A program made the position numbers and the translations under genes. Under the pieces are notes generated by a model. The model was given only the letters and a program-made list of their open reading frames with translations. It did not search any database and was not told the origin of the DNA. This document shows positions 3,370 to 36,798 of a stretch of DNA of 47,449 nt, in pieces. The DNA comes from a virus. Position 1 is the first letter of the stretch. Every line of letters starts with the position of its first letter. The stretch spans positions 1 to 47,449 of the IMG/VR virus record IMGVR_UViG_3300049456_000119; one strand, written 5' to 3'.

Positions 3370-4026
3370 TCAACCATCGAGGGCGACGGGCCACACGAGC
3401 TTGTCGAGCGGATAGCCGTCCGCGAGCACGACGGCGGCGTTCTGGAACAAGACCTTGTTGGCCAGGTTGCGGGGGCGCAGGCCGGGGTTGCCGGTGTCGT
3501 TCAGCCAACCCTCGCCCCGACACGTCACATCGCGACCGGCGTCGCCTGCGGGGCCGGCACACGTCCGGAAATCGAGCTTGGCCACGGCGGCGTCGAAGTG
3601 CGGCGCGCGCCAGCCGGCGCCCGCTGCCCATGCGCACGAGTGCGCGGCGAGCTGCGCGTCGGCCGGCCACTGCGACCAGTTGGCCCAGCGCTTGACGAAC
3701 CACGACTCATTCGAGGCCATGCGCTCTTGCACGAGCTGCACGACCGTCGTCGGGGAGAGGTACAGCGGGCGCGGCGCGCGCTTCGGCCACCATGCGAGCT
3801 TGCCCGCTTTGACGGCCTGCCACTCGGCTTGCACTTCCCCGAGCGACGCGAGTATACCGTCCGAGCGACGCTGCCATGCGATGCCGAGTGCGGCACCGAC
3901 GGGGTCAATCAGATTACCGACCCCGCACGTCACGAGCCCGAGGCAATCCACATACATTTCGTACACGGTGCCTTCGTACGCCGCCGTGAAGTCGGGGAAG
4001 GCGGCGAGGACGTCGGGGTAGCTCAC
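3370..4026 (-). CDS. Endolysin, T4-lysozyme-like muramidase
   Basis: 218 residues. Cleaves the MurNAc-GlcNAc bond of peptidoglycan at the end of infection. The catalytic triad matches T4 lysozyme in spacing: Glu18 (AAYEG), Asp27 (MYVDCLG) and Thr33 (LVTCGVGN) correspond to E11, D20 and T26. The C-terminal NPGLRPRNLANKVLFQNA is typical of GH24-like phage endolysins. There is no signal peptide, so release needs a holin; small membrane proteins and a lipoprotein lie just upstream in the same operon. The protein is longer than T4 lysozyme (164 residues), with extra Trp-rich loops. Confidence 0.85.
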   Translation of the reverse strand: MSYPDVLAAFPDFTAAYEGTVYEMYVDCLGLVTCGVGNLIDPVGAALGIAWQRRSDGILASLGEVQAEWQAVKAGKLAWWPKRAPRPLYLSPTTVVQLVQERMASNESWFVKRWANWSQWPADAQLAAHSCAWAAGAGWRAPHFDAAVAKLDFRTCAGPAGDAGRDVTCRGEGWLNDTGNPGLRPRNLANKVLFQNAAVVLADGYPLDKLVWPVALDG

Positions 4027-4030
4027 CGTC

Positions 4031-4270
4031 TTACTTACCCGAAGGAAACTTGGCGGCCTCGGCGGCGTCGACTTCGACGTTCACGGCAGCGACGGCGGCC
4101 TGAAGGGCAGTTTGCTGCGCATGCGCGGTGATGAGCGTGACGAGTTTCTTGGAGAGCTCCCCGGCCGCGAGGACGACCGGCACGAACTCCGCTTGGCCAA
4201 CGAGCGGTAGCGCGAGGTCGATGAGCGTCTCGGCGACGGAGATTCCGGCGATGATTTGGTCGGGGGTCAT
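4031..4270 (-). CDS. Small lysis-cassette protein, unknown
   Basis: 79 residues from ATG 4270, which overlaps the TGA of the lipoprotein gene upstream (ATGA). Reads MTPDQIIAGISVAETLIDLA then a hydrophobic segment (LPLVGQAEFVPVVLAAGELS) and an Ala-rich helix. Could be a peripheral membrane or holin-accessory protein; the hydrophobic parts are short and broken, so a true membrane span is uncertain. Confidence 0.6.
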   Translation of the reverse strand: MTPDQIIAGISVAETLIDLALPLVGQAEFVPVVLAAGELSKKLVTLITAHAQQTALQAAVAAVNVEVDAAEAAKFPSGK

Positions 4271-4536
4271 TTGCTTCCGTCTCCCGGCGCACCGGCATCC
4301 AGGGGCACCGTGCAACCGCCAGCGTCCCCTAGGGGGCCGTCCGGCGAGCAGTAGTGAGCGACCACGGCGGCGCGGCAAGCGTCGGCCTGGGCCTTCGTGG
4401 TTGCATTGGCGACGCACGCCAAGGACTCGGTCCGGTACGACTCCGTCGCGTTCACGGAAGCGCAGGCCAGGAGCGAAGGCCCCCAGCAACCACCATGAAC
4501 GAGGGCGATCACGCCGATGGCGCGAAGGAATCTCAC
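4267..4536 (-). CDS. Putative lipoprotein, outer-membrane spanin candidate
   Basis: 89 residues from ATG 4536. The N-terminus MRFLRAIGVIALVHGG and the LLAC sequence ending at Cys25 resemble a type II signal peptide, although Leu at -2 is not ideal. The mature part has several Cys residues and a Pro/Gly-rich end. Its place between a holin-like gene and the endolysin suggests an o-spanin role, but the mature sequence is not typical Rz1 (too little Pro), so this is inference. Confidence 0.6.
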   Translation of the reverse strand: MRFLRAIGVIALVHGGCWGPSLLACASVNATESYRTESLACVANATTKAQADACRAAVVAHYCSPDGPLGDAGGCTVPLDAGAPGDGSK

Positions 4537-4715
4537 GATTTCACCGCGGGCGTGAGGAAGGATTGCTTCGCGAGGGCGATACCGACCAGGACCATCGATA
4601 GCGCGGCGCGCTCGACGGTCGCCTTGGATACGCCGGTATTTACCAAATAGTCGACGAAGGCGGTCGCCATCGGTGCGCCGAAGAACAAGGCCCAGTGCTT
4701 CCAGTCAAATTTCAC
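4533..4715 (-). CDS. Holin-like membrane protein
   Basis: 60 residues from ATG 4715, overlapping the next gene by ATGA. Two hydrophobic segments (WALFFGAPMATAFVDYLV and AALSMVLVGIALAKQSFL) joined by a short polar turn (NTGVSKATVER) match the class II holin plan. It is first in the lysis group and follows an intrinsic terminator, so it probably has its own promoter. Confidence 0.65.
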   Translation of the reverse strand: MKFDWKHWALFFGAPMATAFVDYLVNTGVSKATVERAALSMVLVGIALAKQSFLTPAVKS

Positions 4716-13231: not shown

Positions 13232-13780
13232 TCAGGCAGCTCCCGGCAGATTCACGTCGAGAAGGACGATGTTGCCGCTGCCCGTCAGGGTCTGGCGGAC
13301 GCGGAACTGGTGACCCGCATTGGCGATTTCGGTACCGGCGCCCGAGCTGGTCGACGCGTCGGTGAACTTGCCGCGGTCTGCCGCGAGCGTGCTGGAGTGG
13401 TAGGCGTTGGGCATACCGAAGGCGGTCTGCGTAGTGCCCTTCCACTCGGCGTAAATCCGGCCGCGCATGAGCACGGGGACCATGTCGCCGATGTTGTATT
13501 GCGGGCCGCCGATGCCGTAGGCGGTGATGCTCGTCGAGCCGCTCTGCTCGCGAGCAGTCACGAGGACCGACACACCCACTGGGGCGAATGTCGTCGAGGT
13601 CTGCTGGCATTGCTGAACCGACACGCCGTCCGTCGCCATTTCGACGGCGCGTCCCGGCTGAATCACCTCGTTCGCGGGGAACGAGACGATCTCGTTGTAG
13701 GCCATATCGGCCAACTGCCCGGGCATTGCGAATGCCGGGAACTGATTGACCGTTTGCTGGCCCTGAATGACGGCTGTCAT
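13232..13780 (-). CDS. Capsid decoration / cement protein
   Basis: 182 residues (MTAVIQGQQTVNQFPAFAMP). MAYNEIVSFPANEVIQPGRAV and GDMVPVLMRGRIYAEW are typical of phage structural cement (DUF2190-like) proteins that sit on the capsid surface. Between protease/scaffold and major capsid genes, the normal place. Confidence 0.7.
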   Translation of the reverse strand: MTAVIQGQQTVNQFPAFAMPGQLADMAYNEIVSFPANEVIQPGRAVEMATDGVSVQQCQQTSTTFAPVGVSVLVTAREQSGSTSITAYGIGGPQYNIGDMVPVLMRGRIYAEWKGTTQTAFGMPNAYHSSTLAADRGKFTDASTSSGAGTEIANAGHQFRVRQTLTGSGNIVLLDVNLPGAA

Positions 13781-14847
13781 GCGCTCACCTTGAGTTCACC
13801 GGAGTTGCGCCAAGCGTTTTGGCTGTCCGCGAGATGCTTCGTGTAGAGGTCCGTGTATTTGGGGATCACGACTGCGTCAGCGCGGTCGCCCGCGACCGGC
13901 GCCGCGACGACTGCCGCGAGCGAGGGGTGCGGCTGCGAGGCGTACACGGCGAGAATCGTGTCGACGGTCTCGGCGCCGAGGCTGTCCACGCGGGCCGCGA
14001 GGTCCGGGGTGCGCTTGGCGACGATTGCCCGCTTGATGTCGAGGGTCGATTTGCCGGCCGTGTCGACGCCCGCGGCTTTCGCCGTGGCAACGATTGCGGT
14101 TCGCTCTTCGACGAGCGCGTCGAGTCGCTCCGGGGAGACTTGCGCGACCGCGACTGCGAGATCCGCATTGGCCTTCGCGAGAGCGGCCGTCAGAGCGGGC
14201 ACCTCCGCGGCGTCAGTGCGGGATTTCGCCAGTTCGCCAGTCAACGCGGTGACTTGTGCTTGGAGGGCTTCTAGATCCACATTCGAGTTTAGCGACGCCG
14301 CGATCTCATCCCCTGCGGAGTCGAGTCGAAGGGAGCAATCCTGACCGCCGCGGGGCGCTTCTCCCATAAGGAGGGCGACGTGATTCCCGCGAATATTTCG
14401 CTGGACTCCGTCATACGGCTCTCCTTCGGGCGTAATGCCGGGGGTCGGGTCGTAATCGACGCGATATCCGCAAGAGAGACTATGCGCTTTTCGCGCCAGC
14501 ACGTTCTTTACTGACGTCTCGTCTCGGACGTAGACCTCAGAGACCGCGAAACCCGCATCCTCGCGAACGTTCTCGCCAAGGTGCCCGATTGCGTTCCCTT
14601 TCCAGGTCGCCGACGTCACTTTGCGGCCGGCCGGATGATTCAGCGTGACAGTAGAGGAGGCGAAGCTCGCGAGGGATGCCGGGGCGAATACTTCGCTCGG
14701 GGGGCGGTATTCGCGGCGCGCGGTGCCGTCGGGATTCTGATACACGAAAATCCCGGGTCGCGTGAGCTGCCCAACGACTTTGATGGAGCCGTCCGGCAAT
14801 TGCTGAATTGCGGAAGCGTCGAGGCGGAAGTCGGTAAACCGAAGCAC
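13777..14847 (-). CDS. Prohead protease fused to scaffold (DUF2213-like)
   Basis: 356 residues from GTG 14847, only five bases after CTAAACT, so the mRNA may be leaderless. The N-terminal ~170 residues are a DUF2213-type maturation protease with conserved TLNHP (His71) and HSLSCGY (Ser125) as the likely catalytic pair. Residues about 189-240 form a long Ala/Leu/Glu coiled coil (LEALQAQVTALTGELAKS), the scaffold part, with a C-terminal capsid-binding tail. It guides shell assembly, then cleaves itself and partners. Confidence 0.8.
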   Translation of the reverse strand: MLRFTDFRLDASAIQQLPDGSIKVVGQLTRPGIFVYQNPDGTARREYRPPSEVFAPASLASFASSTVTLNHPAGRKVTSATWKGNAIGHLGENVREDAGFAVSEVYVRDETSVKNVLARKAHSLSCGYRVDYDPTPGITPEGEPYDGVQRNIRGNHVALLMGEAPRGGQDCSLRLDSAGDEIAASLNSNVDLEALQAQVTALTGELAKSRTDAAEVPALTAALAKANADLAVAVAQVSPERLDALVEERTAIVATAKAAGVDTAGKSTLDIKRAIVAKRTPDLAARVDSLGAETVDTILAVYASQPHPSLAAVVAAPVAGDRADAVVIPKYTDLYTKHLADSQNAWRNSGELKVSA

Positions 14848-22504: not shown

Positions 22505-22857
22505 CCCCCGCTGACGTCGCCGCTCGTCTCGGGTGCTCACGCGCGTACGCCTACGTGGTCGTGCGCTCGCTCCCGCACGTGCGCGTCGGCAGGCTCCTTC
22601 GCGTGACGGAAGAGGTCGTGTGTGCTTACCTAGAGCGATGCGAACGCCTACCCCCTATACCCTTGTCCGCGTCGATGGTTCGCCCTTCTGGTACGTGTAC
22701 TTCCTCGACCGGGCCGGGTCTCGCGTCCGGAAGTCGACGAAGGAGCACTCCAAAGAGCGCGCGCATGCAGTGGCTCGGGAACTCGAGCGACGGTACGGAG
22801 ATCCGACCTACAACGCCGCGAACGCAACGACCCTCTCGGATGCCGCCCGCAGCCTGA
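22486..22857 (+). CDS. Excisionase-like HTH protein
   Basis: From GTG 22486 the frame reads LLTPADVAARLGCSRAYAYV then SLPHVRVGRLLRVTEEVVCA, a winged HTH of the excisionase/MerR type (HTH_17). Excisionases bend att DNA and favour excision. After about 55 residues the frame runs inside the integrase gene and gives low-complexity sequence, so the functional protein may be the first half only, or a -1 shift could join it to the integrase frame. Start is uncertain because no strong ribosome site is visible. Confidence 0.6.
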   Translation: MPVSLLTPADVAARLGCSRAYAYVVVRSLPHVRVGRLLRVTEEVVCAYLERCERLPPIPLSASMVRPSGTCTSSTGPGLASGSRRRSTPKSARMQWLGNSSDGTEIRPTTPRTQRPSRMPPAA

Positions 22858-23666
22858 AGGAGCACCTTGAAAACACCGGACGCTCTTCTGAAACCCGAGC
22901 CTTCTACGGCGTCAAGCTCGGCCATGTGGGCCGCGTTCTCGGAACGGATTGCCGGCTTGCGGACGTCACGGCGCCCGCCGTGGACGGGTACATCCGATTA
23001 CGTCGAGCTGAAGGTGCGGCGCGCTACACGATCGCCAAAGAGCTGACCGCGCTGCGGATGCTCCTGAAGGTCGCGCGTCGCCGCGGGGAGTTCGACCGGG
23101 AAGTCTCCCAGGTCATGCCCGTAGGCTTCGCGACCGGTTATAAGCCGCGCATGCGGCGGTTGACCCGCGGGGACGCGTGGGCCTTGATCGCCATGCTCCC
23201 GGAGCCCTGCGGTCGGTATGCGGCCTTCGTGTGCGCGACGACGGCGCGGGACTCCGCGGTCGGCCGCGCCATCGGTTCAGACCGCTTGGCCACGGGCATC
23301 CGCGTGCGCGATGCGAAGACCCGTGCCGCTGCGCGCGTGGTACCCTTCACCGCCGTGACGGCGGCGTTCGCCGACTTCGCCTTCCTGAACGTCGCTCCGG
23401 ACGCCGCCGTCGCACCCGGGCTCGGGAGCGTGCGCCACGCGTTCGATCGCGCGTGCGCGCGCCTCGGCTTCCCGCACACGAGCCCCAACGACCTCCGGCG
23501 GTCCGTGGCCCACTGGCTACTAGAGGAGAGCGTACCGCGCGACGTGGTCGCGGCGTTCATGGGGCACACGTCGACCAAGATGCTTGACTCCGTCTACGGG
23601 AAGCTCGATCCGACGCAGATCGGCGAAGCTATTGCGCGGGCCGTTTCGATGCGCGCGCCAGAGTGA
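22638..23666 (+). CDS. int: Tyrosine integrase
   Basis: 342 residues from ATG 22638. N-terminal arm-type sequence (FWYVYFLDRAGSRVRKSTKE) and a SAM-like core-binding domain (about 55-150) precede the catalytic domain. Arg box TTARDSAVGRA, Lys in DAKTRAAARVVPF, box II DLRRSVAHWLL, GHTS and nucleophile Tyr in MLDSVYGKL are present. The first residue of H-x-x-R is Asn (PNDLRR), a tolerated but unusual change. The attP-like tRNA segment lies 250 bp downstream. It integrates the phage into the host chromosome, probably at tRNA-Phe. Confidence 0.85.
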   Translation: MRTPTPYTLVRVDGSPFWYVYFLDRAGSRVRKSTKEHSKERAHAVARELERRYGDPTYNAANATTLSDAARSLKEHLENTGRSSETRAFYGVKLGHVGRVLGTDCRLADVTAPAVDGYIRLRRAEGAARYTIAKELTALRMLLKVARRRGEFDREVSQVMPVGFATGYKPRMRRLTRGDAWALIAMLPEPCGRYAAFVCATTARDSAVGRAIGSDRLATGIRVRDAKTRAAARVVPFTAVTAAFADFAFLNVAPDAAVAPGLGSVRHAFDRACARLGFPHTSPNDLRRSVAHWLLEESVPRDVVAAFMGHTSTKMLDSVYGKLDPTQIGEAIARAVSMRAPE

Positions 23667-23814
23667 GGATGCCGCTCTTGCACATGTCGATATCTCGGCG
23701 CATCTCTCGGCTCTCCAGCTCGAGGATTTCGATGCGGTCGACGAGCGATGCGATCAGCTCGGCCAGTTTCGGATGCTCGGGGCCGATGAGGATACGGATG
23801 TGCGCGGGGTCCAT
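23629..23814 (-). CDS. Small coiled-coil protein antisense to int end
   Basis: 61 residues from ATG 23814: MDPAHIRILIGPEHPKLAEL, then a coiled-coil helix (VDRIEILELESREMRRDIDM). Opposite strand to the integrase, overlapping its last 38 bases. Weak ribosome site (TTGAGC). Could be a regulator of recombination; may also not be expressed. Confidence 0.45.
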   Translation of the reverse strand: MDPAHIRILIGPEHPKLAELIASLVDRIEILELESREMRRDIDMCKSGILTLARASKRPAQ

Positions 23815-23915
23815 GTGCTCAAGCGTAGCAGATCGAGTTGGGACGCATTTGGGAAAACCGTCCAGAATACTGTTCACGCAGTGGACGCAGTGCACGACGA
23901 GACCCCGGAAATTCG

Positions 23916-23962
23916 TGCGCAGGGACGGAATCGAACCGCCGACACGGGGATTTTCAGTCCCG
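23916..23962 (-). other. attP: Probable attP core: 3' half of tRNA-Phe(GAA)
   Basis: Minus strand, 23962 to 23916, reads as the anticodon arm (GGGA-CTGAAAA-TCCC, anticodon GAA), variable loop CGTGTC, T arm (GGCGG-TTCGATT-CCGTC) and 3' acceptor strand of tRNA-Phe. The 5' half is absent, so it is not a gene. Phages whose integrase targets a tRNA carry just such a fragment to rebuild the gene on integration. Location beside int supports it. Confidence 0.8.
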
Positions 23963-24065
23963 ACAAAACCTCCGGGAAAGTGCGTAACAGCAGAGGTTTT
24001 GTAACGGAGTTGGGATGAAGCCGGGCGTTCCGGTGCAGGTCTTTCTAGGAAACCTCCCCGCGACA

Positions 24066-25664: not shown

Positions 25665-26282
25665 ATGCCCGTACCCGTCGTCGATAACGCCCACGTGGCC
25701 GAGGGCGTCGGACTCCTGACGTCCCGTTACAAGAACGCGGCGGTAGTCAAAGGAATTACGACGGCGCTAATGCTTCGCTTCCAAGAGGCGGAGGCGCAGC
25801 TCTGGTCCCTTATCAACGGCGTGCAACTCTCCAACCACCCGATGGCCGGCGGCCCGTGGAGCATCTTGGACCAATTGGCGTCGCTTGTCGGCGTCCCCGG
25901 GGGTCGGAAGGGCCTCTCCGACGCCGACCTGGTCACGGCAATTCGGTTGCAAATCAAGGTGAATCGCAGTCACGGTCTCGCCGAGGACGTCATTCAGGTT
26001 TTGAAACTTGCGACGGGAAATAGTCAATTGTATCTTGACGCCCCGCCCGCAGGCTTTATTGTGTCGGTGTTGGACATCTCGGACGCCTTTGCGGCGATTC
26101 TCGCGTCGATCGTGACGCAGGTTCGTAGCGCGGGGACTTCCGGCACCCTCATCTACACAACCTGGAGCCCCGGCAATGACCTCATACTCGATTCGACCAC
26201 TGGCCACATTCCGGCCGCTAGCCATCTTGGCTCTACTACTGACGGCACTGGCGGGCTGCTTGCTACCGTCCTCCCCGTCTGA
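25665..26282 (+). CDS. Baseplate wedge / tail protein I-like
   Basis: 205 residues. MLRFQEAEAQLWSLINGVQL, LASLVGVPGGRKGLSDADLV and LQIKVNRSHGLAEDVIQVLK match the DUF2612-type proteins that follow J in simple myophage baseplates and connect to the fibre. The last ~100 bases overlap an alternative upstream start of the fibre gene. Confidence 0.65.
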   Translation: MPVPVVDNAHVAEGVGLLTSRYKNAAVVKGITTALMLRFQEAEAQLWSLINGVQLSNHPMAGGPWSILDQLASLVGVPGGRKGLSDADLVTAIRLQIKVNRSHGLAEDVIQVLKLATGNSQLYLDAPPAGFIVSVLDISDAFAAILASIVTQVRSAGTSGTLIYTTWSPGNDLILDSTTGHIPAASHLGSTTDGTGGLLATVLPV

Positions 26283-26298
26283 CGTTACCGAGGAAACT

Positions 26299-27702
26299 AT
26301 GTCGCGACCTGTCATTTTCAATCAGCCGTTCGTTTACAACTGGTCGACCGAGGCGAACTTCCCCTCGGGGGCATATGCCGGGACGCCAACGAAGGTTACC
26401 CCGACCGGGGACATCTTCTTCCCCGACCAACCGCTTGCAGCGCAACCGCTGAACTACGTCCTGAGCCAGTTCGGTCCGGTCGACATGGCGAACCAGAATT
26501 GGAACATCGCGAACCTGACCGGGATCTTGAACTGGACCGGCAACGATATCGCGCTTCAGTGGTACCCCACGCAGCTTGCGGCGACGATGGACACCGGACT
26601 GTTCGCGGGCGACACCAACAACCACGGCCTTCAGGCGGTGTGTTGGAACCCGTTCGACCAGGTCTGGCAAGGCCTCTTCAGCGTCATCGATAGCGGCGGC
26701 CCCACCCCGCGTATGCGCGTCGCCATCAACAGCGGCACCGACACGACCTGGACCGCCGATGTGCATTGCAACCAGGACGCGAGCGCCTTCGCCTTGACGG
26801 CCGGCACCTCGGACATGATTCACGATCCCTACTTCGAACACGTCACGTACTGGGCGGTATCGCTCGGGCCGGGGAACGGGTTCGAAGTCTTCATGAGCAA
26901 CAACAACACGGGGACCACGAGCATCCTCACGGTCGGCGGTTTTACCGTGCAGAACATCACGCTCTCGTTCTTTGGTTTGTCCGGATACCTGATCGTCGGT
27001 GTGACGGACGCGGCGGGGACGAACACGGCGCTCTACTCGTCGGACGACCTCGGGGTGACTTGGGGCCACACGACGTACGCAACGCAGACGGGCAAGTGGT
27101 ACTTCCAGCCCGTCGACTTTGCCGGGACTGCCTACATCGCCGCGATTGCGTCGGGCCTCGGTGGCCAGACGGCGCTCCTACATCTTTCGACTACCGGGGC
27201 GCCCGGCAGTTGGTCGGTCGGCTCTTCGGTCGGCGGAGCGGGGGAGAACGTACACGGGCTTGCGCGCTTCAACCAACCCATCTCTAGCACGGCGTTCGCT
27301 CAGTACCTCGCCACTTCCGTCGGCCATACCGTGCAAGTCACCGGGAACGGGGCCTCCTGGACGACGCAGCACACATCGGTCAATGCCGACTGCCTCGACG
27401 ATATTCGAGGGGCGGGCACCATTCTGGTAGCGAGCCTCGACATCACGAAGCTGACCTACAACTTCTCTCGAGGCGGCGTCGACGACATGGCGCTCGTCTT
27501 TAGCCTGGATAGCGGCGTCACTTGGAGCTGGAGCCCGAACGTGCTTCGACCGGCGACGGCTGCAGTCCGTCGGCTCGTCGACAACTCTACGTTGGATGCG
27601 ACCGGGACCGTGATTGTCCCAGCGACTCAGCTTGGCATGTACCACACGGGGGCTCTGCGACTTTCGATGGCGCAGGGAGCTTCGATGGCGGCCGGGTTCT
27701 AA
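26299..27702 (+). CDS. Receptor-binding beta-propeller protein
   Basis: 467 residues from ATG 26299, chosen for the GAGGAAACT ribosome site. N-terminal ~50 residues (FNQPFVYNWSTEANFPSGAY) look like a baseplate-attachment domain. The rest is a beta-propeller with sialidase-type Asp boxes: SSDDLGVTW and SLDSGVTW. It probably recognises or trims surface sugars. An in-frame ATG at 26176 would add 41 residues including a good lipoprotein signal (LTALAGC) but overlaps the previous gene by 107 bases. Confidence 0.65.
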   Translation: MSRPVIFNQPFVYNWSTEANFPSGAYAGTPTKVTPTGDIFFPDQPLAAQPLNYVLSQFGPVDMANQNWNIANLTGILNWTGNDIALQWYPTQLAATMDTGLFAGDTNNHGLQAVCWNPFDQVWQGLFSVIDSGGPTPRMRVAINSGTDTTWTADVHCNQDASAFALTAGTSDMIHDPYFEHVTYWAVSLGPGNGFEVFMSNNNTGTTSILTVGGFTVQNITLSFFGLSGYLIVGVTDAAGTNTALYSSDDLGVTWGHTTYATQTGKWYFQPVDFAGTAYIAAIASGLGGQTALLHLSTTGAPGSWSVGSSVGGAGENVHGLARFNQPISSTAFAQYLATSVGHTVQVTGNGASWTTQHTSVNADCLDDIRGAGTILVASLDITKLTYNFSRGGVDDMALVFSLDSGVTWSWSPNVLRPATAAVRRLVDNSTLDATGTVIVPATQLGMYHTGALRLSMAQGASMAAGF

Positions 27703-28166: not shown

Positions 28167-28243
28167 CGTTCCGCCCGCACGTTGAAGTAGAGCGAGATCA
28201 GGATGAGAAGTAACCACGCGCCCCAGAGATAGACGTCGATCAC
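28163..28243 (-). CDS. 26-residue membrane protein
   Basis: GTG 28243 overlaps the pentapeptide stop, and its TGA overlaps the RuvC start. Sequence MIDVYLWGAWLLLILISLYF then NVRAER: one membrane helix with a basic end. Exactly fills the gap between the two genes. Confidence 0.6.
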   Translation of the reverse strand: MIDVYLWGAWLLLILISLYFNVRAER

Positions 28244-29175
28244 GGCGACACCGGACGGGGCAAGTGCCTACCATCGAAGAGCGCAACGAAGGTCGCGACA
28301 AGGGCGCGCTTCGTTTCGGGGGCATCCGCTTGACGGTGTATATCCAGTCCCGCGGCCATGGGGCAATCGGTCCACGAGTGAGATCCCCACGCGGCGATAG
28401 CGCGGGAGGTTGCCTCGGAGGTATCGCAGAGTCCCGCGAGCGGATCGGATTGCCACTGGGCAAGGGTGCGACCGTCGGGGAGATTGGCGTTCTGGAAATC
28501 GGCGCCCTGGAGATTGGCGCCCGTGAGATTGGCGCCACGGAAATCGGCGCCCTGGAGATCGGCGTCCTGGAGATTGGCGCCCTGGAGATTGGCGCCCCGG
28601 AGATTGGCGCCCCGGAGATTGGCGCCACGGAGACTGGCGCCCGTGAGATCGGCGTTCTGGAGACCGGCGCCCCCGAGATCGTCGTTCTGGAGATGGGTGT
28701 ACCGTAGATTGGCGTCCTGGAGATTGGCGCCCGTGAGATTGGCGCCACGGAGATCGGCGTCCTGGAGATCGGCGTTCTGGAGATAGGCGTCCTGGAAATC
28801 GGCGCCCGTGAGATGGGCGCCTCGGAGATCGGCGCCCTGGAGATTGGCGCCACGGAGATGGGTGTCCCGTAGATTGGCGCCACGGAGATCGGCGTCCTGG
28901 AAATTGGCGTCCTGGAAATTGGCTCCCCGGAGACGGGCGCCCGTGAGACGGGCGCCCGTGAGATCGGCGTACCGTAGATCGGCGTCCTGGAGATCGGCGC
29001 CCTGGAGATCGACGCCCTGGAGAGTGGCGCCCTGGAGATGGGCGCCCTGGAGACGGGCGCCCCCGAGATCGGCGCCCCGGAGATTGGCTCCCTGGAGATA
29101 GGCGCCCTGGAGATTGTCCCCGGGGTGCATGAATACGATTTCGTGAGTGAGGCGATGTTTGATGGTTACGGGCAT
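28240..29175 (-). CDS. Pentapeptide-repeat protein with C-terminal domain
   Basis: 311 residues from ATG 29175. N-terminal MPVTIKHRLTHEIVFMHPGD, then about 43 A(D/N)LQ/R-type repeats (residues ~20-230) and a non-repeat C-terminal domain (RTLAQWQSDPLAGLCDTSEA to the end). The repeat part forms a long quadrilateral beta-helix, in some family members a DNA mimic that protects or inhibits gyrase. Controlled by a CTAATTAGTAAG element touching its start codon and cotranscribed with a RuvC-like nuclease, which favours a DNA-related role. Confidence 0.85.
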   Translation of the reverse strand: MPVTIKHRLTHEIVFMHPGDNLQGAYLQGANLRGADLGGARLQGAHLQGATLQGVDLQGADLQDADLRYADLTGARLTGARLRGANFQDANFQDADLRGANLRDTHLRGANLQGADLRGAHLTGADFQDAYLQNADLQDADLRGANLTGANLQDANLRYTHLQNDDLGGAGLQNADLTGASLRGANLRGANLRGANLQGANLQDADLQGADFRGANLTGANLQGADFQNANLPDGRTLAQWQSDPLAGLCDTSEATSRAIAAWGSHSWTDCPMAAGLDIHRQADAPETKRALVATFVALFDGRHLPRPVSP

Positions 29176-31845: not shown

Positions 31846-32358
31846 TCACTTGTTCACCCGGTACCATGCGCGCACGTCGCGCGGCGTAGGACCGAGGGGC
31901 GCGGACAAGTCGATCTTCCAGTACATGAGCGCCCCGGGGTGCTTGTAATCGTCGTCCAGACCCATCGCGTGCCCTAGCTCGTGCGCCGCGACCTCCGTGA
32001 GTTCGTCCCCGACCATCACGTCGACGGCTAGGCCGATGAACAGGTGGCCGTCCGGTTGAGGGTTATATAGGCCGACCACGTTATGGTGCTTGCCAGTTCG
32101 GCGCTCGAACTCCGCACTCAGGTCCGCTTCGGTCCCCGGGAGGATGCGGATTAGCTTGTTCTCTCCGCGATGTACGACAAAAAAGAACGCAAGGCCGGGG
32201 ATGGCGTCCTCCCACAAATGCGCGCCGCGCTCGACCTGGCGACGCTGCGCCGGAGTAAAGTCTGCACTAATTTCTACATCGTAGACCCGATGAAGGTCGG
32301 GACCGGCGTTCCAGGCCGACCACCCGAACATCGCGGCGTAAATTAGCTGCCGGAGCAC
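31846..32358 (-). CDS. Metzincin-like zinc protease
   Basis: 170 residues from GTG 32358. Residues 126-136 HELGHAMGLDD give His126-Glu127-x-x-His130 and Asp136 as third ligand, as in snapalysin-type enzymes, and ALMY (Met145) gives the Met-turn. The N-terminus LRQLIYAAMFGWSAWNAG is a short hydrophobic stretch, possibly a signal or anchor. Likely degrades host envelope or extracellular protein, or processes virion proteins. Converges with the portal gene. Confidence 0.8.
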   Translation of the reverse strand: MLRQLIYAAMFGWSAWNAGPDLHRVYDVEISADFTPAQRRQVERGAHLWEDAIPGLAFFFVVHRGENKLIRILPGTEADLSAEFERRTGKHHNVVGLYNPQPDGHLFIGLAVDVMVGDELTEVAAHELGHAMGLDDDYKHPGALMYWKIDLSAPLGPTPRDVRAWYRVNK

Positions 32359-32510
32359 GGGACCGGGCGCTGCGTTGGGAGAGTGCCTTCTTCGTCAATC
32401 GACGGGGGCAGCGGGTCGGGCAAGTCGTGCGCCGCGATAACGAGCCGAATTGCTCCCTCGACGTTCATCGTCTCCACCATGGCGTAAAGGGCGGCGGGCG
32501 AAATTACCAT
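32343..32510 (-). CDS. Small protein upstream of the metzincin
   Basis: 55 residues from ATG 32510. MVISPAALYAMVETMNVEGA then LVIAAHDLPDPLPPSIDEEG. The last 16 bases overlap the protease start. A CTAAACT element lies 31 bases before its start. Function unknown; could act as inhibitor or leader of the protease, which is inference. Confidence 0.55.
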   Translation of the reverse strand: MVISPAALYAMVETMNVEGAIRLVIAAHDLPDPLPPSIDEEGTLPTQRPVPCSGS

Positions 32511-32540
32511 TCTTATTTATTAGTGTGAGTCCGGTAATTA

Positions 32541-32547
32541 AGTTTAG
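32541..32547 (-). promoter_or_regulatory. CTAAACT element before the metzincin pair
   Basis: Reads GGCACTAAACTTAATTACCG on the minus strand, in a 123-bp intergenic gap. Confidence 0.5.
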
Positions 32548-32633
32548 TGCCGCGGGTTTACTGGCGAGCGCGTCTGACGCACTGCTCATACGAGCCTGCT
32601 TGACGCGGCGAGATAAAAGGCTATTACACGCCC

Positions 32634-33068
32634 ATGACCAAAAGCAGCCCGCCCCCGCGACAGAAAGAGCCTCTTCCCGCCGAGTGTCGAATCTGCCGGT
32701 ACCAATTCAATACCGGCATCCTCGGCTGGGATAAGCACATCGGCGCCATCGACAAGCACCCGAACTGGCACCCCGAGCTCACGACCCCGGCCGAACGTCA
32801 AGCGCAGTACGCGGCCGAGTTCCCGGACTTTTTCAAGGATGCGCTTACGGCCGACCGTCGAAAGCCGCCGGCCGATCGGCTCCCGACACCGCCGCACGGC
32901 ACGCGGAGGCTGGTCGGGGTGTACAGTAGTCACGACCCGCCTACAGGTCGCCGGAGCGTGCTCGCATCACCAGAGAGCGGAATGCCGCCGCCGCCGGTTG
33001 CGGAGACGCGGTGCCCTACTTGCGGCGGCCCCGTGGCGGTGCATTACCTGTCGTCGGCGAAGGGTTAG
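32634..33068 (+). CDS. Zinc-finger-like protein
   Basis: 144 residues from ATG 32634. N-terminal AECRICRYQFNTGILGWDKH and HIGAIDKHPNWHP form a plausible C2H2-type or HNH-like metal site; a second CPTCGG lies near the C-terminus. It is a lone plus-strand gene inside a minus-strand region; TTGACG at about 32600 and TATTAC may be its promoter. Ends by four-base overlap with the converging gene. Confidence 0.6.
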   Translation: MTKSSPPPRQKEPLPAECRICRYQFNTGILGWDKHIGAIDKHPNWHPELTTPAERQAQYAAEFPDFFKDALTADRRKPPADRLPTPPHGTRRLVGVYSSHDPPTGRRSVLASPESGMPPPPVAETRCPTCGGPVAVHYLSSAKG

Positions 33069-33181
33069 GGCGACGCCCAAGCCCACACCACGACGCGCCA
33101 GAGGCAACCCAAAGCGGCCAAATAGCCGACGCCTACGAGACTCATGAGCGCGAGCGCTACCAAGGGGGAAGGCGGCTTCAC
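33065..33181 (-). CDS. 38-residue membrane protein
   Basis: GTG 33181 overlaps the TGA of the lipoprotein metzincin. MKPPSPLVALALMSLVGVGY then LAALGCLWRVVVWAWASP, one or two hydrophobic spans. Function unknown. Confidence 0.55.
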   Translation of the reverse strand: MKPPSPLVALALMSLVGVGYLAALGCLWRVVVWAWASP

Positions 33182-33672
33182 GGTGCCCCCGCTTCCACGG
33201 CCCGCACGGCGCGCCATTGCGCAATGTCCGTCGGCGTCACGGTGAGCGAGCCGAGGTCCGAGTAGGGATACATGAGCGTGCCCGGGCCGGTATGCAGTAG
33301 TCCCATCGCGTGCCCCATCTCGTGCGCGATGAGGCGCTGCGCCATCGCGGGGGTTTGCTTCACGAGCGCCGGCTCTACGAGCCACATTTCCGTAAAAACC
33401 GTGTAGCCGGTCATCACCCCGGGCTCGAGAGGGTTCGGGGGAATGCTGTCGACGGGGTGCATGCAAATCATCCCGAGCCGCCGCTGCTCCGGGCAAGGGC
33501 CGTCGGCGAAGGTGATCTTGACCGGCACATTGGCCATCCAATCGGCGGCGGCTGCGCGGGCCGCTGCGAGCGTTGTGACCGAGAAGCCGGGGTCCGGCCG
33601 CGCGACGTAGTCGGCGCCGAAGCAGCCGATCAGGAGCGCGAGCGCGGCGAGGGCGAGAAGGGGGCGGATCAT
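33178..33672 (-). CDS. Lipoprotein metzincin protease
   Basis: 164 residues from ATG 33672. Residues 1-17 MIRPLLALAALALLIGC are a lipoprotein signal with lipobox LIGC (Cys17). Residues 117-127 HEMGHAMGLLH are the full HExxHxxGxxH metzincin motif and TLMY (Met134) is the Met-turn. The protein should be a lipid-anchored zinc endopeptidase facing the periplasm or outside. It shares the motif HE-GHAMGL with the protease at 31846-32358 but is otherwise different. Such a gene is unusual in a phage. Confidence 0.85.
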   Translation of the reverse strand: MIRPLLALAALALLIGCFGADYVARPDPGFSVTTLAAARAAAADWMANVPVKITFADGPCPEQRRLGMICMHPVDSIPPNPLEPGVMTGYTVFTEMWLVEPALVKQTPAMAQRLIAHEMGHAMGLLHTGPGTLMYPYSDLGSLTVTPTDIAQWRAVRAVEAGAP

Positions 33673-33875
33673 CGTCGACCGCCCGGTTGCGCGTCGACCA
33701 GTTCTTGCACACGCGCCGCAAGGCGCGCGCATCGCGCCGATAGTAGGTCGCGAGAAGCGGTAAGTTCCGCGAGCGACGCCGACAGAATGTCCCCGCGCGC
33801 GTCAGCAGCGGCAAGCTTCAAGGTCAGCTCGGCCACGCGGCCTTGCAATACGTCCAATGCCCACGGGGTACTCAT
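33669..33875 (-). CDS. Small coiled-coil protein
   Basis: 68 residues from ATG 33875 (ATGA overlap at both ends). LDVLQGRVAELTLKLAAADA and LLSARCARLAARVQELVDAQ form a long amphipathic helix. No membrane segment, so a spanin is unlikely. Confidence 0.6.
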   Translation of the reverse strand: MSTPWALDVLQGRVAELTLKLAAADARGDILSASLAELTASRDLLSARCARLAARVQELVDAQPGGRR

Positions 33876-34306
33876 GCCGCCACCTTCTTTGCGCTCGCGC
33901 GCGTCAATACGATTCCTAGAGATTCCGCAATCTGAATCCAGCGCGTCGGGGGGCGCCCGGGCCCGACCTTCGTACACCACGCGGGGCGCTCGCCCGCGAG
34001 CAGACGTTGACGAATGTCTTCGCTCTCAACCTTGATCGCGTGCGCGCGTTGGTACTGCTTGCGCTCGACGGTGCGCGGGGTCTTGCCGCCGAAGATGCCG
34101 GGCTTGTGATAGTTACGCATCCCGTTCACGTGCGAGGCGTTGCCGCTCTGTATGTACGTGAGCACGACATCCGGGGTTTTTCCGATGCCGCTTCCACGGC
34201 CGGTCTGATCTCCAATCAAAGACTGCAAGCGAATGTCCTCCGCGAACGTCTCTTGAAACTCGCCGAAAAGCTCTTCGATTTCTTCGCTCAAATTAGTGAA
34301 CGCCAT
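33872..34306 (-). CDS. Hypothetical protein after terminase
   Basis: 144 residues (MAFTNLSEEIEELFGEFQET). Contains RPAWCTKVGPGRPPTRWIQI and SLGIVLTRASAKKV, mixed basic. No family recognised. Six bases separate it from the terminase stop, so it belongs to the same operon. Confidence 0.6.
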   Translation of the reverse strand: MAFTNLSEEIEELFGEFQETFAEDIRLQSLIGDQTGRGSGIGKTPDVVLTYIQSGNASHVNGMRNYHKPGIFGGKTPRTVERKQYQRAHAIKVESEDIRQRLLAGERPAWCTKVGPGRPPTRWIQIAESLGIVLTRASAKKVAA

Positions 34307-34312
34307 TTTGCC

Positions 34313-35827
34313 TCAGGTAATGCCAAGGCCCGGCGTCGCGCGCACGGTCTCCATGGCTGCTTTTAGGTAGGACATGAACTGCAAAAGGTAGAGAAGCGCC
34401 TGCGTCGTCGCATCGACTTGGTCGTCGTGCTTGGCGCGCGGGAAAGATAGAAGCTCGGGCAAATACAACGATGCGACCCACTCGTACCCGGGCATGGCCG
34501 GGTCGGGTAAATAGACGTTCCCCGCCTCGAAAAGACCTGAAGTCGCTGACGCGCGAGAAAACTTTCCCCCCTGCGGATCGACAGCCACGAGGCCCGGCAC
34601 TTCCAAGGTCAGCGTGGCCACCACGCCGGTCCCGTTCGCCTTATCCTCAATTAGCTTCACAATAGCTTGTTTCCAGCGGAGTGCAAGCTCACGGACTTTT
34701 TTTACCGTCATCGGGAAGTCGAAGTGCCCGTGAAGTTGGTCGAGCAAGAAGAACCAAGCACCGACACGCGCCCACGCTTGGCCCGCGACGAAGTCGCTCG
34801 TTGCCTCGTCCTTGAAGGCACAATCCCACGAGTTCACGATCTGATCGAACGCAACCGGGCGCGCGATGATCTCGCTCGGTTCCCACCCGGGCATGATGAC
34901 GTGCCGGCCTTCGCGGACGGTCGACCAGAACCTGAGGGTCTCGCGCTTGAAGACCGCGCCGCCCTCGGGGACGGGGGACTGGTCGTACTGCGCCGAGTAC
35001 GCCATGCCGCCAAGGTCGAGCTTCATCTTGTCGAGCCACGCCTGCGGGAGTCGGTTCGGCTCGAAGAGCTCCCCGACCTTCGTGCGCGGGTCGCTGCCCC
35101 AAGTCGTCACCGTGCGGCGCGCAGGGTCGAAGTTCGCCGGCAGGCAAAGGTGAACGGCGCCGTTGTCGAGAAGAAGCTGAGAGGGGTCGTCGCAATGCAA
35201 CCGCTGCATGATGAGGATGCGGGAGCGCACTTGGTCGGCGCCGAGTCGCCAGCGCGAGCCAAGCGTCGTTCCGATCCACGCGCGCGCCGTCTCGAGACCG
35301 ATCTTCGAAAGGTCGGCCGGCTTGATTGGGTCGTCGATGATTTGGTAGTTCGCGTGCCACCCGGTGACCGCGCCGCCCGGGGTAGTCCCGAGGCGCCAGC
35401 CCCCGCGGTTGTTTTCGATGAGCTCGACCGCCGGCTTCGTGGGGATCTTGAAGTCCTCGCCCCAGCGGGCCAGCCACCACTTCGATTGCAAGACCTCGCG
35501 GAACGCGCGCGCGTCGCGGTGAATGATGTCGTCGCCGTACGCCCCCGTGATGATACTTCGCTCGGGGGACTTCGCCCAAATCCACAACGGGAAGAGCACG
35601 CACGTGAGTGATGACTTGCTACCGGCCGGCGGAATGTTCACGACGAGCTCGCGAATTTCGCCCGTGTAGCAAGCCTGGTAATGCGATGCAATCAAAGGTA
35701 TGTGCCAATTCCATTGCAAAGGAAAAGCGGCATACGCTTGAGGCCAAACCATCCGTATGAAATCGATGAAATTACCGCTTCGAACCGTCTCCCTATCGCA
35801 CGCAATTAGATTCTCACGCAGCGACAT
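34313..35827 (-). CDS. terL: Terminase large subunit
   Basis: 504 residues from ATG 35827. N-terminal ATPase with Walker A variant PPAGSKSS (66-73) and Walker B QIIDDP (162-167); C-terminal RNase H-fold nuclease with Asp335 (NSWDCAFKD), Glu394/Asp395 (LIEDKANG) and KHDDQVDA (467-474). It cuts concatemers and pumps DNA through the portal. The portal is 4 kb away, on the other strand, an unusual split of the packaging genes. Confidence 0.9.
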   Translation of the reverse strand: MSLRENLIACDRETVRSGNFIDFIRMVWPQAYAAFPLQWNWHIPLIASHYQACYTGEIRELVVNIPPAGSKSSLTCVLFPLWIWAKSPERSIITGAYGDDIIHRDARAFREVLQSKWWLARWGEDFKIPTKPAVELIENNRGGWRLGTTPGGAVTGWHANYQIIDDPIKPADLSKIGLETARAWIGTTLGSRWRLGADQVRSRILIMQRLHCDDPSQLLLDNGAVHLCLPANFDPARRTVTTWGSDPRTKVGELFEPNRLPQAWLDKMKLDLGGMAYSAQYDQSPVPEGGAVFKRETLRFWSTVREGRHVIMPGWEPSEIIARPVAFDQIVNSWDCAFKDEATSDFVAGQAWARVGAWFFLLDQLHGHFDFPMTVKKVRELALRWKQAIVKLIEDKANGTGVVATLTLEVPGLVAVDPQGGKFSRASATSGLFEAGNVYLPDPAMPGYEWVASLYLPELLSFPRAKHDDQVDATTQALLYLLQFMSYLKAAMETVRATPGLGIT

Positions 35828-35906: not shown

Positions 35907-36109
35907 GCGCGCCTCGGCGCCGGGGGCAACGGATCGAGCACCAACGGTGCGGTTGTCCGGAAAACTTCGTGAATCTGATAGACCACGAACACGCGCGAGT
36001 CGTACGACATCGACATCTCTTTCGCGCGCGTCACGGCTTGCTGGCGGGTAACCGAAGTCACGAGTCCGCCTTCGCTCATTACGATGTACTCGAGGTCGGG
36101 AGCGATCAT
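35903..36109 (-). CDS. Small hypothetical protein
   Basis: 68 residues (MIAPDLEYIVMSEGGLVTSV). Alpha/beta pattern with RVFVVYQIHEVFRTTAPLVL, similar in type to other small phage proteins. ATGA overlaps on both sides. Confidence 0.6.
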   Translation of the reverse strand: MIAPDLEYIVMSEGGLVTSVTRQQAVTRAKEMSMSYDSRVFVVYQIHEVFRTTAPLVLDPLPPAPRRA

Positions 36110-36798
36110 CGCACCGCCCTCCGTCGCGCGACGTAGTCCGTCGCCTCTTTGGTCAGATCGTCGCGCTTCCCCGTCCAGAACTCTCCGCGGTCTTTCGCCG
36201 CGAGCTTCCGCACGAACGTGCGAAGCGCGAGCATGTCGCGCTTGCGGTCGATTGCATCCTCGGGCGCATCCGGCACGGTCGCGATGGCGGCCGGCAGGCA
36301 GGAGGATATCCGCTTCGTGCGGTCGAACGGTTGCGTGCGGGGGTCGATCGCCATGAAGGTGGCCTGAGCCGCCTGCGCGCGCTTCATTGCGCTCGGGGCG
36401 ATGCCGACCTCGACGGGCTCCGCCTCGCGCCCGTGCTGCGCGTAGAAGGCCGCCATCGCGTCTTGCTGCGCGCGGGGTAAGTCAGCATCCTTCGGTCGCG
36501 AGATGGGCGTGGCGTGGCGGAGAACGAGCTGCATTTCGTGCCGCATCTTGAAGAACGCGAGCGTCGAGAAAGCCCCGCGCTCGGGGTCCCACTCGGCGAT
36601 GGCGGCCAAGAGGCCGAGGCGCGCGGCCTGGAAGATGTCGTCGCGGAGGTTGTCGATCGCGTACTGCGTCCGACCGAGGAAAGCGCTCGCGAAGCGCTGC
36701 ACGAGCGGCTCGTTCTCGGCCGCCATCTTAGCCATGAGGCGCGACTTTTTCACGCGGCTCGTGGCCGTCTTCCAGGCGTCGAAATCGATTCGGTTCAT
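36106..36798 (-). CDS. Sigma-70 region 2-like protein
   Basis: 230 residues. Residues 51-95 (LRDDIFQAARLGLLAAIAEW, DPERGAFSTLAFFKMRHEMQ) match sigma region 2.1-2.4: D-D-x-x-Q-x-x-x-x-G-L, the D-P-E-R-G turn and F-S-T-x-A. Region 4 is not clear; the C-terminal LRTFVRKLAAKDRGEFWTGK may be a degenerate form. Likely a phage sigma factor redirecting host RNA polymerase to phage promoters, perhaps to CTAAACT or CTAATTAGTAAG sites. It could instead be a phage-borne transcription-modulating fragment. Confidence 0.7.
   Translation of the reverse strand: MNRIDFDAWKTATSRVKKSRLMAKMAAENEPLVQRFASAFLGRTQYAIDNLRDDIFQAARLGLLAAIAEWDPERGAFSTLAFFKMRHEMQLVLRHATPISRPKDADLPRAQQDAMAAFYAQHGREAEPVEVGIAPSAMKRAQAAQATFMAIDPRTQPFDRTKRISSCLPAAIATVPDAPEDAIDRKRDMLALRTFVRKLAAKDRGEFWTGKRDDLTKEATDYVARRRAVR

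What the first reader, a model, noticed from the sequence alone, without database searches (positions are those of the whole stretch)
31846..33672. Two phage metzincin proteases, one a lipoprotein
Both have HE-GHAMGL and a Met-turn, with third ligands Asp (31846-32358) and His (33178-33672). The second has a clear lipobox, so it would sit in the envelope of an infected or lysogenic cell. Metzincins are rare in phages; a pair near terminase is unusual. Possible uses: superinfection control, breaking host surface proteins, lysogenic conversion.
Basis: partly seen in the sequence, partly recalled or inferred. Interest (0 to 1): 0.85.

Follow-up and report, generated by a model that had tools for sequence, protein, structure and literature searches.

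The report
Phage metzincin proteases, one lipoprotein
A temperate environmental phage carries two real matrixin-like zinc protease genes, one with a lipoprotein anchor, and relatives in unrelated phages sit beside lysis genes, so these proteases most likely help to breach the host envelope rather than being an isolated oddity.

Summary
P1 (31846-32358) has HELGHAMGLDD..LMY (third ligand Asp) and no lipobox. P2 (33178-33672) has HEMGHAMGLLH..LMY (His) and lipobox LLIGC. Confident AlphaFold models match MMP catalytic domains. They are not recent duplicates: each has its own sister protein in a related phage. They behave as movable cargo: the P2 sister (55% identity, lipobox kept, dN/dS about 0.4) lies between two tail genes that abut in the window. 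Such proteins recur: one narrow motif found about 80 distinct ORFs in IMG/VR, at least 24 with a lipobox; 8 of 37 records hold two or more. New evidence points to lysis: in one clade the metzincin gene overlaps an endolysin gene (M15 peptidase or amidase); in another it sits in a small cassette with a membrane protein, a lipoprotein and a nearby endolysin, partly homologous to the window's own lysis genes. Precedents are the phage-derived Listeria Mtz-Tim pair and a Mycobacterium prophage. In the window both genes lie about 28 kb from the lysis genes, so the role is inferred (0.42).

The parts
31846..32358 (-). P1: metzincin (matrixin-like), 170 aa, HExxHxxGxxD with Met-turn LMY; no lipobox; GTG start
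   Evidence: ORF; Pfam M10 1.1e-5; AF2 model pLDDT 87.2; Foldseek to MMP-11 and snapalysin
33178..33672 (-). P2: lipoprotein metzincin, 164 aa, lipobox LLIGC, HExxHxxGxxH with Met-turn LMY
   Evidence: ORF; Pfam M10 1.6e-4 (just below cut-off); AF2 pLDDT 85.6; Foldseek to MMPs; 55% sister protein with lipobox in L171
33669..33875 (-). 68-aa ORF, coiled-coil by eye, whose stop overlaps the P2 start (ATGA)
   Evidence: sequence; no homologue in fetched loci
33065..33181 (-). 38-aa ORF with one hydrophobic segment, overlapping the P2 stop (GTGA)
   Evidence: sequence; L034 has a similar small ORF after its metzincin
33872..34306 (-). 144-aa gene between TerL and the P2 cluster; homologue in the same place in a related phage (L020)
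   Evidence: E=3e-8
34313..35827 (-). Terminase large subunit, upstream gene of the P2 run
   Evidence: Pfam Terminase_6C; PHROG 38
32343..32510 (-). 55-aa ORF overlapping the P1 start
   Evidence: sequence; by eye
32634..33068 (+). 144-aa CxxC zinc-finger-like gene, divergent from P1; homologue also divergent from the P1 sister in L012
   Evidence: (30% identity, E=2e-5)
3370..4026 (-). Endolysin-like gene (lysis region, distant from the metzincins)
   Evidence: 37% identity, E=4e-19 to L026 endolysin
4267..4536 (-). Cys-rich lipoprotein-like gene next to the endolysin; homologue of the lipoprotein beside the metzincin in L027 and L007
   Evidence: E=1e-4, 1e-3
22533..23666 (+). Tyrosine-type integrase, evidence that the phage is temperate
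   Evidence: PHROG 1 E=1.2e-30

Best explanation
P1 and P2 are small, prodomain-less matrixin-like zinc endopeptidases carried as exchangeable late-region cargo of a temperate myovirus. Shown by sequence and model: the metzincin motifs and fold, the lipobox on P2, constraint on P2, and movement between sites. Inferred: P2 is exported by Sec, lipidated, and (residue +2 is Phe, not Asp) held in the outer membrane if the host is a typical Gram-negative; it is made late with the TerL genes and cleaves envelope proteins so that, once the endolysin acts, the envelope opens and virions are released. P1, with no clear signal peptide, would stay in the cytoplasm and reach the envelope when the holin opens the membrane. 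They would thus be accessory lysis proteases, as proposed for the phage-derived Listeria Mtz.
For: Fold and motif. Lipobox kept while the signal sequence diverges, dN/dS about 0.37. Mobility: L171 has the P2 sister in a 1.4-kb insertion between two tail genes that abut in the window; L020 has a metzincin after TerL and the 144-aa homologue. Lysis link, clade A: in L203/L202, L040, L206/L131 and L032 the metzincin gene overlaps the start of an M15-type or Amidase_2 endolysin gene (PF13539 6e-11 in L040 and 2e-6 in L206; PF01510 2e-17 in L032; PHROG endolysin 3e-5 in L203). Clade B: in L003/L026/L027/L007 it sits in a cassette with a single-TM protein and a Cys-rich lipoprotein and, in L026 and L027, a clear endolysin within 1.5-2.5 kb. 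The window's endolysin and adjacent lipoprotein are homologues of clade B genes. The P1 sister in L012 lies about 2.4 kb past its endolysin-like gene. Precedents: Listeria Mtz-Tim raises sensitivity to holin-lysin and virion release (PMC8235301); a Mycobacterium prophage has metallopeptidase and inhibitor genes next to holin and lysins.
Against: In the window both genes lie about 28 kb from the lysis genes. In other phages relatives sit beside DNA methylase and HNH genes (L186-L188) or between ThyX-like and NUDIX-like genes (L034/L198; both by eye), not in lysis cassettes. No inhibitor gene was recognised. Expression timing, export and activity are untested. Only about nine distinct loci show the lysis link out of about 80. 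In L003 the muralytic call is weak (Pfam E=0.011), in L007 none was found nearby, and the gene after the L017 metzincin has no match.
Confidence: 0.42

Rival explanations
1. Superinfection exclusion or receptor removal: P2, anchored in the outer membrane during infection or lysogeny, cleaves the phage receptor or other surface proteins and blocks re-adsorption or rival phages, a goal that phage lipoproteins such as Ltp reach by other means.
For: Lipobox, temperate phage, cargo behaviour, position outside the lysis cassette; lipoprotein superinfection exclusion is a known phage strategy (PMC3952083, listed).
Against: Known exclusion lipoproteins are not, as far as I recall, proteases (general knowledge, not tested); P2 follows TerL in a tightly packed run, which suggests late rather than lysogenic expression; two clades tie relatives to endolysins; no PADLOC match.
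Confidence: 0.25
2. Lysogenic conversion: the proteases act for the host bacterium, on competitors or nutrients, as exported cargo enzymes.
For: Temperate phage; most relatives in viral contigs have an exported-type N-terminus; cellular genomes carry related metzincins (controls).
Against: P2 lies in the terminase gene run with overlapping ATGA and GTGA junctions and no promoter-like site of its own; P1 has no clear signal peptide.
Confidence: 0.15
3. Virion-associated or assembly proteases: P1, or both, are packaged or act in head or tail maturation.
For: P1 abuts the portal gene; P2 is near TerL; the L171 sister is among tail genes; P1 has no clear export signal.
Against: A separate head maturation protease gene is present (13777-14847, PHROG 530); P2 carries a lipobox; position varies among related phages; no PHROG match.
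Confidence: 0.08
4. Inactive relics or chance ORFs.
For: Pfam scores are modest.
Against: Motif, Met-turn, fold, lipobox and dN/dS about 0.37 against L171.
Confidence: 0.03

Closest known systems
Matrixins (Pfam PF00413, MEROPS M10A; bacterial example karilysin)
   Same: HExxHxxGxxH, Met-turn, catalytic domain size; Foldseek and profile matches to MMPs and karilysin
   Different: No prodomain or hemopexin; phage-encoded; P2 has a lipobox; P1 has Asp as third ligand; about 13-26% identity to solved structures
Snapalysin (M7, Streptomyces)
   Same: P1: third ligand Asp; TM-score by target 0.73-0.74, the highest of the matches listed; Pfam M7 E=4e-4, below cut-off
   Different: P1 scores better against M10; far below the NCBIfam snapalysin cut-off (20.7 against 300 bits)
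Phage-derived Listeria Mtz-Tim pair (PMC8235301)
   Same: Phage-associated metzincin acting on the host envelope and aiding phage lysis
   Different: There the protease is secreted and the partner is the lipoprotein; here the protease itself has the lipobox and no TIMP-like partner was recognised; host envelope type unknown
Mycobacterium prophage prophiGD12-2 genes 80 and 79
   Same: Metallopeptidase in a prophage, next to holin and lysins
   Different: 400-aa protein with an annotated inhibitor; only weak similarity to P2 (E=0.02)
Spanins and other accessory lysis proteins
   Same: Proposed step (final envelope disruption after the endolysin), small lipoprotein, lysis neighbourhood in relatives
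   Different: An enzyme, not a fusion or tether protein; the window's genes are not in its lysis cassette

Membership tests
Metzincins / matrixin-like (M10) | HExxHxxGxxH/D zinc motif | tested here: met
   P1 HELGHAMGLDD, P2 HEMGHAMGLLH; HE-GHA-G invariant in alignment A3
Metzincins / matrixin-like (M10) | Met-turn after the zinc motif | tested here: met
   ALMY and TLMY; Met invariant in A3
Metzincins / matrixin-like (M10) | Metzincin fold | tested here: met
   AF2 models; best PDB matches are MMP catalytic domains, probability 1.00, TM about 0.5-0.65
Metzincins / matrixin-like (M10) | Profile score over Pfam M10 cut-off | tested here: inconclusive
   P1 over (25.8 of 24), P2 just under (22.0)
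Metzincins / matrixin-like (M10) | Zinc-dependent proteolysis | not testable with these tools
   needs purified protein
Snapalysin (M7), for P1 | Family model score over cut-off | tested here: not met
   20.9 of 25 bits Pfam M7; 20.7 of 300 bits NCBIfam
Bacterial lipoprotein (P2) | Signal peptide with lipobox Cys | tested here: met
   MIRPLLALAALALLIGC by sequence; kept in L171 as LLAGC
Bacterial lipoprotein (P2) | Lipidation and membrane location | not testable with these tools
   needs fractionation or labelling
Lysis-cassette protein | Gene inside the lysis cassette | tested here: not met
   window genes are about 28 kb from 3370-4715; met in clades A and B of relatives
Listeria Mtz-Tim type pair | Adjacent TIMP-like partner gene | tested here: inconclusive
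   the neighbours (68, 38, 55 and 144 aa) gave no such match where searched; their structures were not predicted
Superinfection exclusion lipoprotein | Blocks phage adsorption or DNA entry | not testable with these tools
   needs infection assays

The most novel reading that the evidence does not exclude
Membrane-anchored metzincins are an unrecognised class of phage lysis protein: an enzyme that cuts envelope proteins, translationally coupled to exchangeable endolysins in some phages and carried as free cargo in others, working beside or in place of spanins.
Probability: 0.3. Interest if true: 0.8.

Novelty: new variant of a known kind. Interest (0 to 1): 0.58.

Why it matters
How phages open the envelope of bacteria beyond the well-studied model hosts is poorly known. 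A recurring, exported-type protease that in two phage clades sits with unrelated types of endolysin is a testable candidate for an enzymatic step of lysis, and it turns a finding that looked like a one-off into a class with many members.

Tried and rejected
Close-relative scans of IMG/VR with P1 or P2 alone found nothing; motif scans worked. GenBank phage hits were weak; the Acinetobacter 'phage MD-2021a' matrixins lie on what looks like a chromosomal contig with dnaK, grpE and purEK, so they were set aside. A TerL search of bacterial genomes gave at best 40% identity (Terriglobia MAGs), with no metzincin near it, so the host is not settled. The idea that P1 and P2 are a recent tandem duplication was rejected by the tree (P1 with L012 99/96; P2 with L171 100/88). 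PADLOC gave nothing. A sigma-70 promoter scan of the region found no site. A last scan for more endolysin-coupled members returned the known contigs as its best matches; the weaker ones were not examined. Full-text paper searches found no description of lipoprotein metzincins in lysis cassettes, but that library is incomplete.

Full report
What is there. The window is a whole IMG/VR virus record of 47,449 bases. It encodes a myovirus-type tail (sheath), a portal gene on the plus strand, TerL on the minus strand, and an integrase. Both reported ORFs are on the minus strand. P1 (31846-32358) has the zinc motif HELGHAMGLDD and LMY; P2 (33178-33672) has HEMGHAMGLLH, LMY and the lipobox LLIGC. Pfam M10 matches P1 above its cut-off and P2 just below. 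AlphaFold models built on 22 phage sequences are confident and their best PDB matches are MMP catalytic domains; P1 also matches snapalysin, whose third ligand is Asp as well (the ligand statement is general knowledge). A profile of these phage proteins finds MMPs and karilysin by sequence alone (E down to 1e-14).

Neighbourhood. P2 lies in a closely packed minus-strand run: TerL, a 144-aa gene, a 68-aa ORF, P2 (ATGA overlap), a 38-aa ORF with one hydrophobic segment (GTGA overlap). P1 lies behind a 55-aa ORF and is divergent from a zinc-finger-like gene. No promoter-like site was found in the region.

Relatives. A phage with a 61% identical TerL (contig 3300031240_000006, loci L012 and L020) carries both kinds: a metzincin after TerL and the 144-aa homologue, and a P1 sister elsewhere, again divergent from a zinc-finger homologue. 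L171, about 60% identical to the window in tail proteins, has the P2 sister (55%) with lipobox LLAGC in a 1.4-kb insertion between two tail genes that abut in the window. dN is 0.42 and dS 1.13. L049 (TerL 51%) has another lipo-metzincin before a tail gene. A tree places P1 with L012 and P2 with L171. So the two genes are separate, constrained and movable cargo.

How common. Two motif scans of IMG/VR (2.9 million contigs) gave about 80 distinct ORFs; by a simple rule 19 have a strict and 5 a relaxed lipobox, and 30 more have another hydrophobic N-terminus. The rule is crude and the motif narrow, so these are rough counts: such genes are rare per contig but recur in many unrelated phages. In 37 records, 8 held two or more M10 matches, though several of these are near-copies of one another.

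Function. Two clades give the strongest clue. Clade A (L203/L202, L040, L206/L131, L032): the metzincin, in most fused to a coiled-coil and membrane segment, overlaps the start of an endolysin gene, M15-type or Amidase_2; L017 has the same layout but the next gene is unidentified. L032 also shares the Asp ligand and the LDD-x-Y...MYW pattern with P1. Clade B (L003, L026, L027, L007): a conserved small cassette holds the metzincin, a single-TM protein, a Cys-rich lipoprotein and a short helical protein; L026 and L027 have clear endolysins 1.5-2.5 kb away, of different types. The window's own endolysin-like gene and adjacent lipoprotein are homologues of clade B genes. Unrelated muralytic enzymes at the same place are typical of lysis cassettes. 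In Listeria, a phage-derived metzincin and its lipoprotein partner raise sensitivity to holin-lysin and virion release (PMC8235301), and a Mycobacterium prophage has a metallopeptidase and inhibitor beside holin and lysins.

Limits. In the window the metzincins are not in the lysis cassette, and some relatives are in quite different surroundings. Lysis aid is therefore the best-supported single role (0.42), ahead of superinfection exclusion (0.25) and lysogenic conversion (0.15). Everything about export, activity, timing and substrate is inference.

Noticed in passing
window 22533-24015: The integrase lies inside the tail module, between genes that are contiguous in the related phage L171, so about 2.3 kb is inserted here.
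   Followed up: partly
window 23914-23961, minus strand: A stretch reads like the 3' half of a tRNA with anticodon loop CTGAAAA (tRNA-Phe by eye), a likely attP site; ARAGORN finds no complete tRNA.
   Followed up: partly
window 28240-29175 and 2-397: A pentapeptide-repeat protein gene near the portal and a similar partial copy at the left end of the record.
   Followed up: no
window 26176-27702: A tail-end protein with a weak BNR-like match has an N-terminus that reads like a lipoprotein signal (LLTALAGC), but that start overlaps the gene before it by about 100 bases, so the true start may be later.
   Followed up: no
window 36106-36798: A sigma-factor-like gene upstream of TerL (PHROG 351, E=1.2e-10), with look-alikes before TerL in L043 and L048 (by eye); possible late-gene regulator.
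   Followed up: no
L006:5488-6679 and L165:9718-12682: Two lipoprotein metzincin genes, adjacent in L006 and about 1.7 kb apart in L165.
   Followed up: partly
GenBank CAKLQH020000026.1 (L181): A record named Acinetobacter phage MD-2021a carries dnaK, grpE and purEK near two matrixin genes and looks like bacterial chromosome.
   Followed up: no
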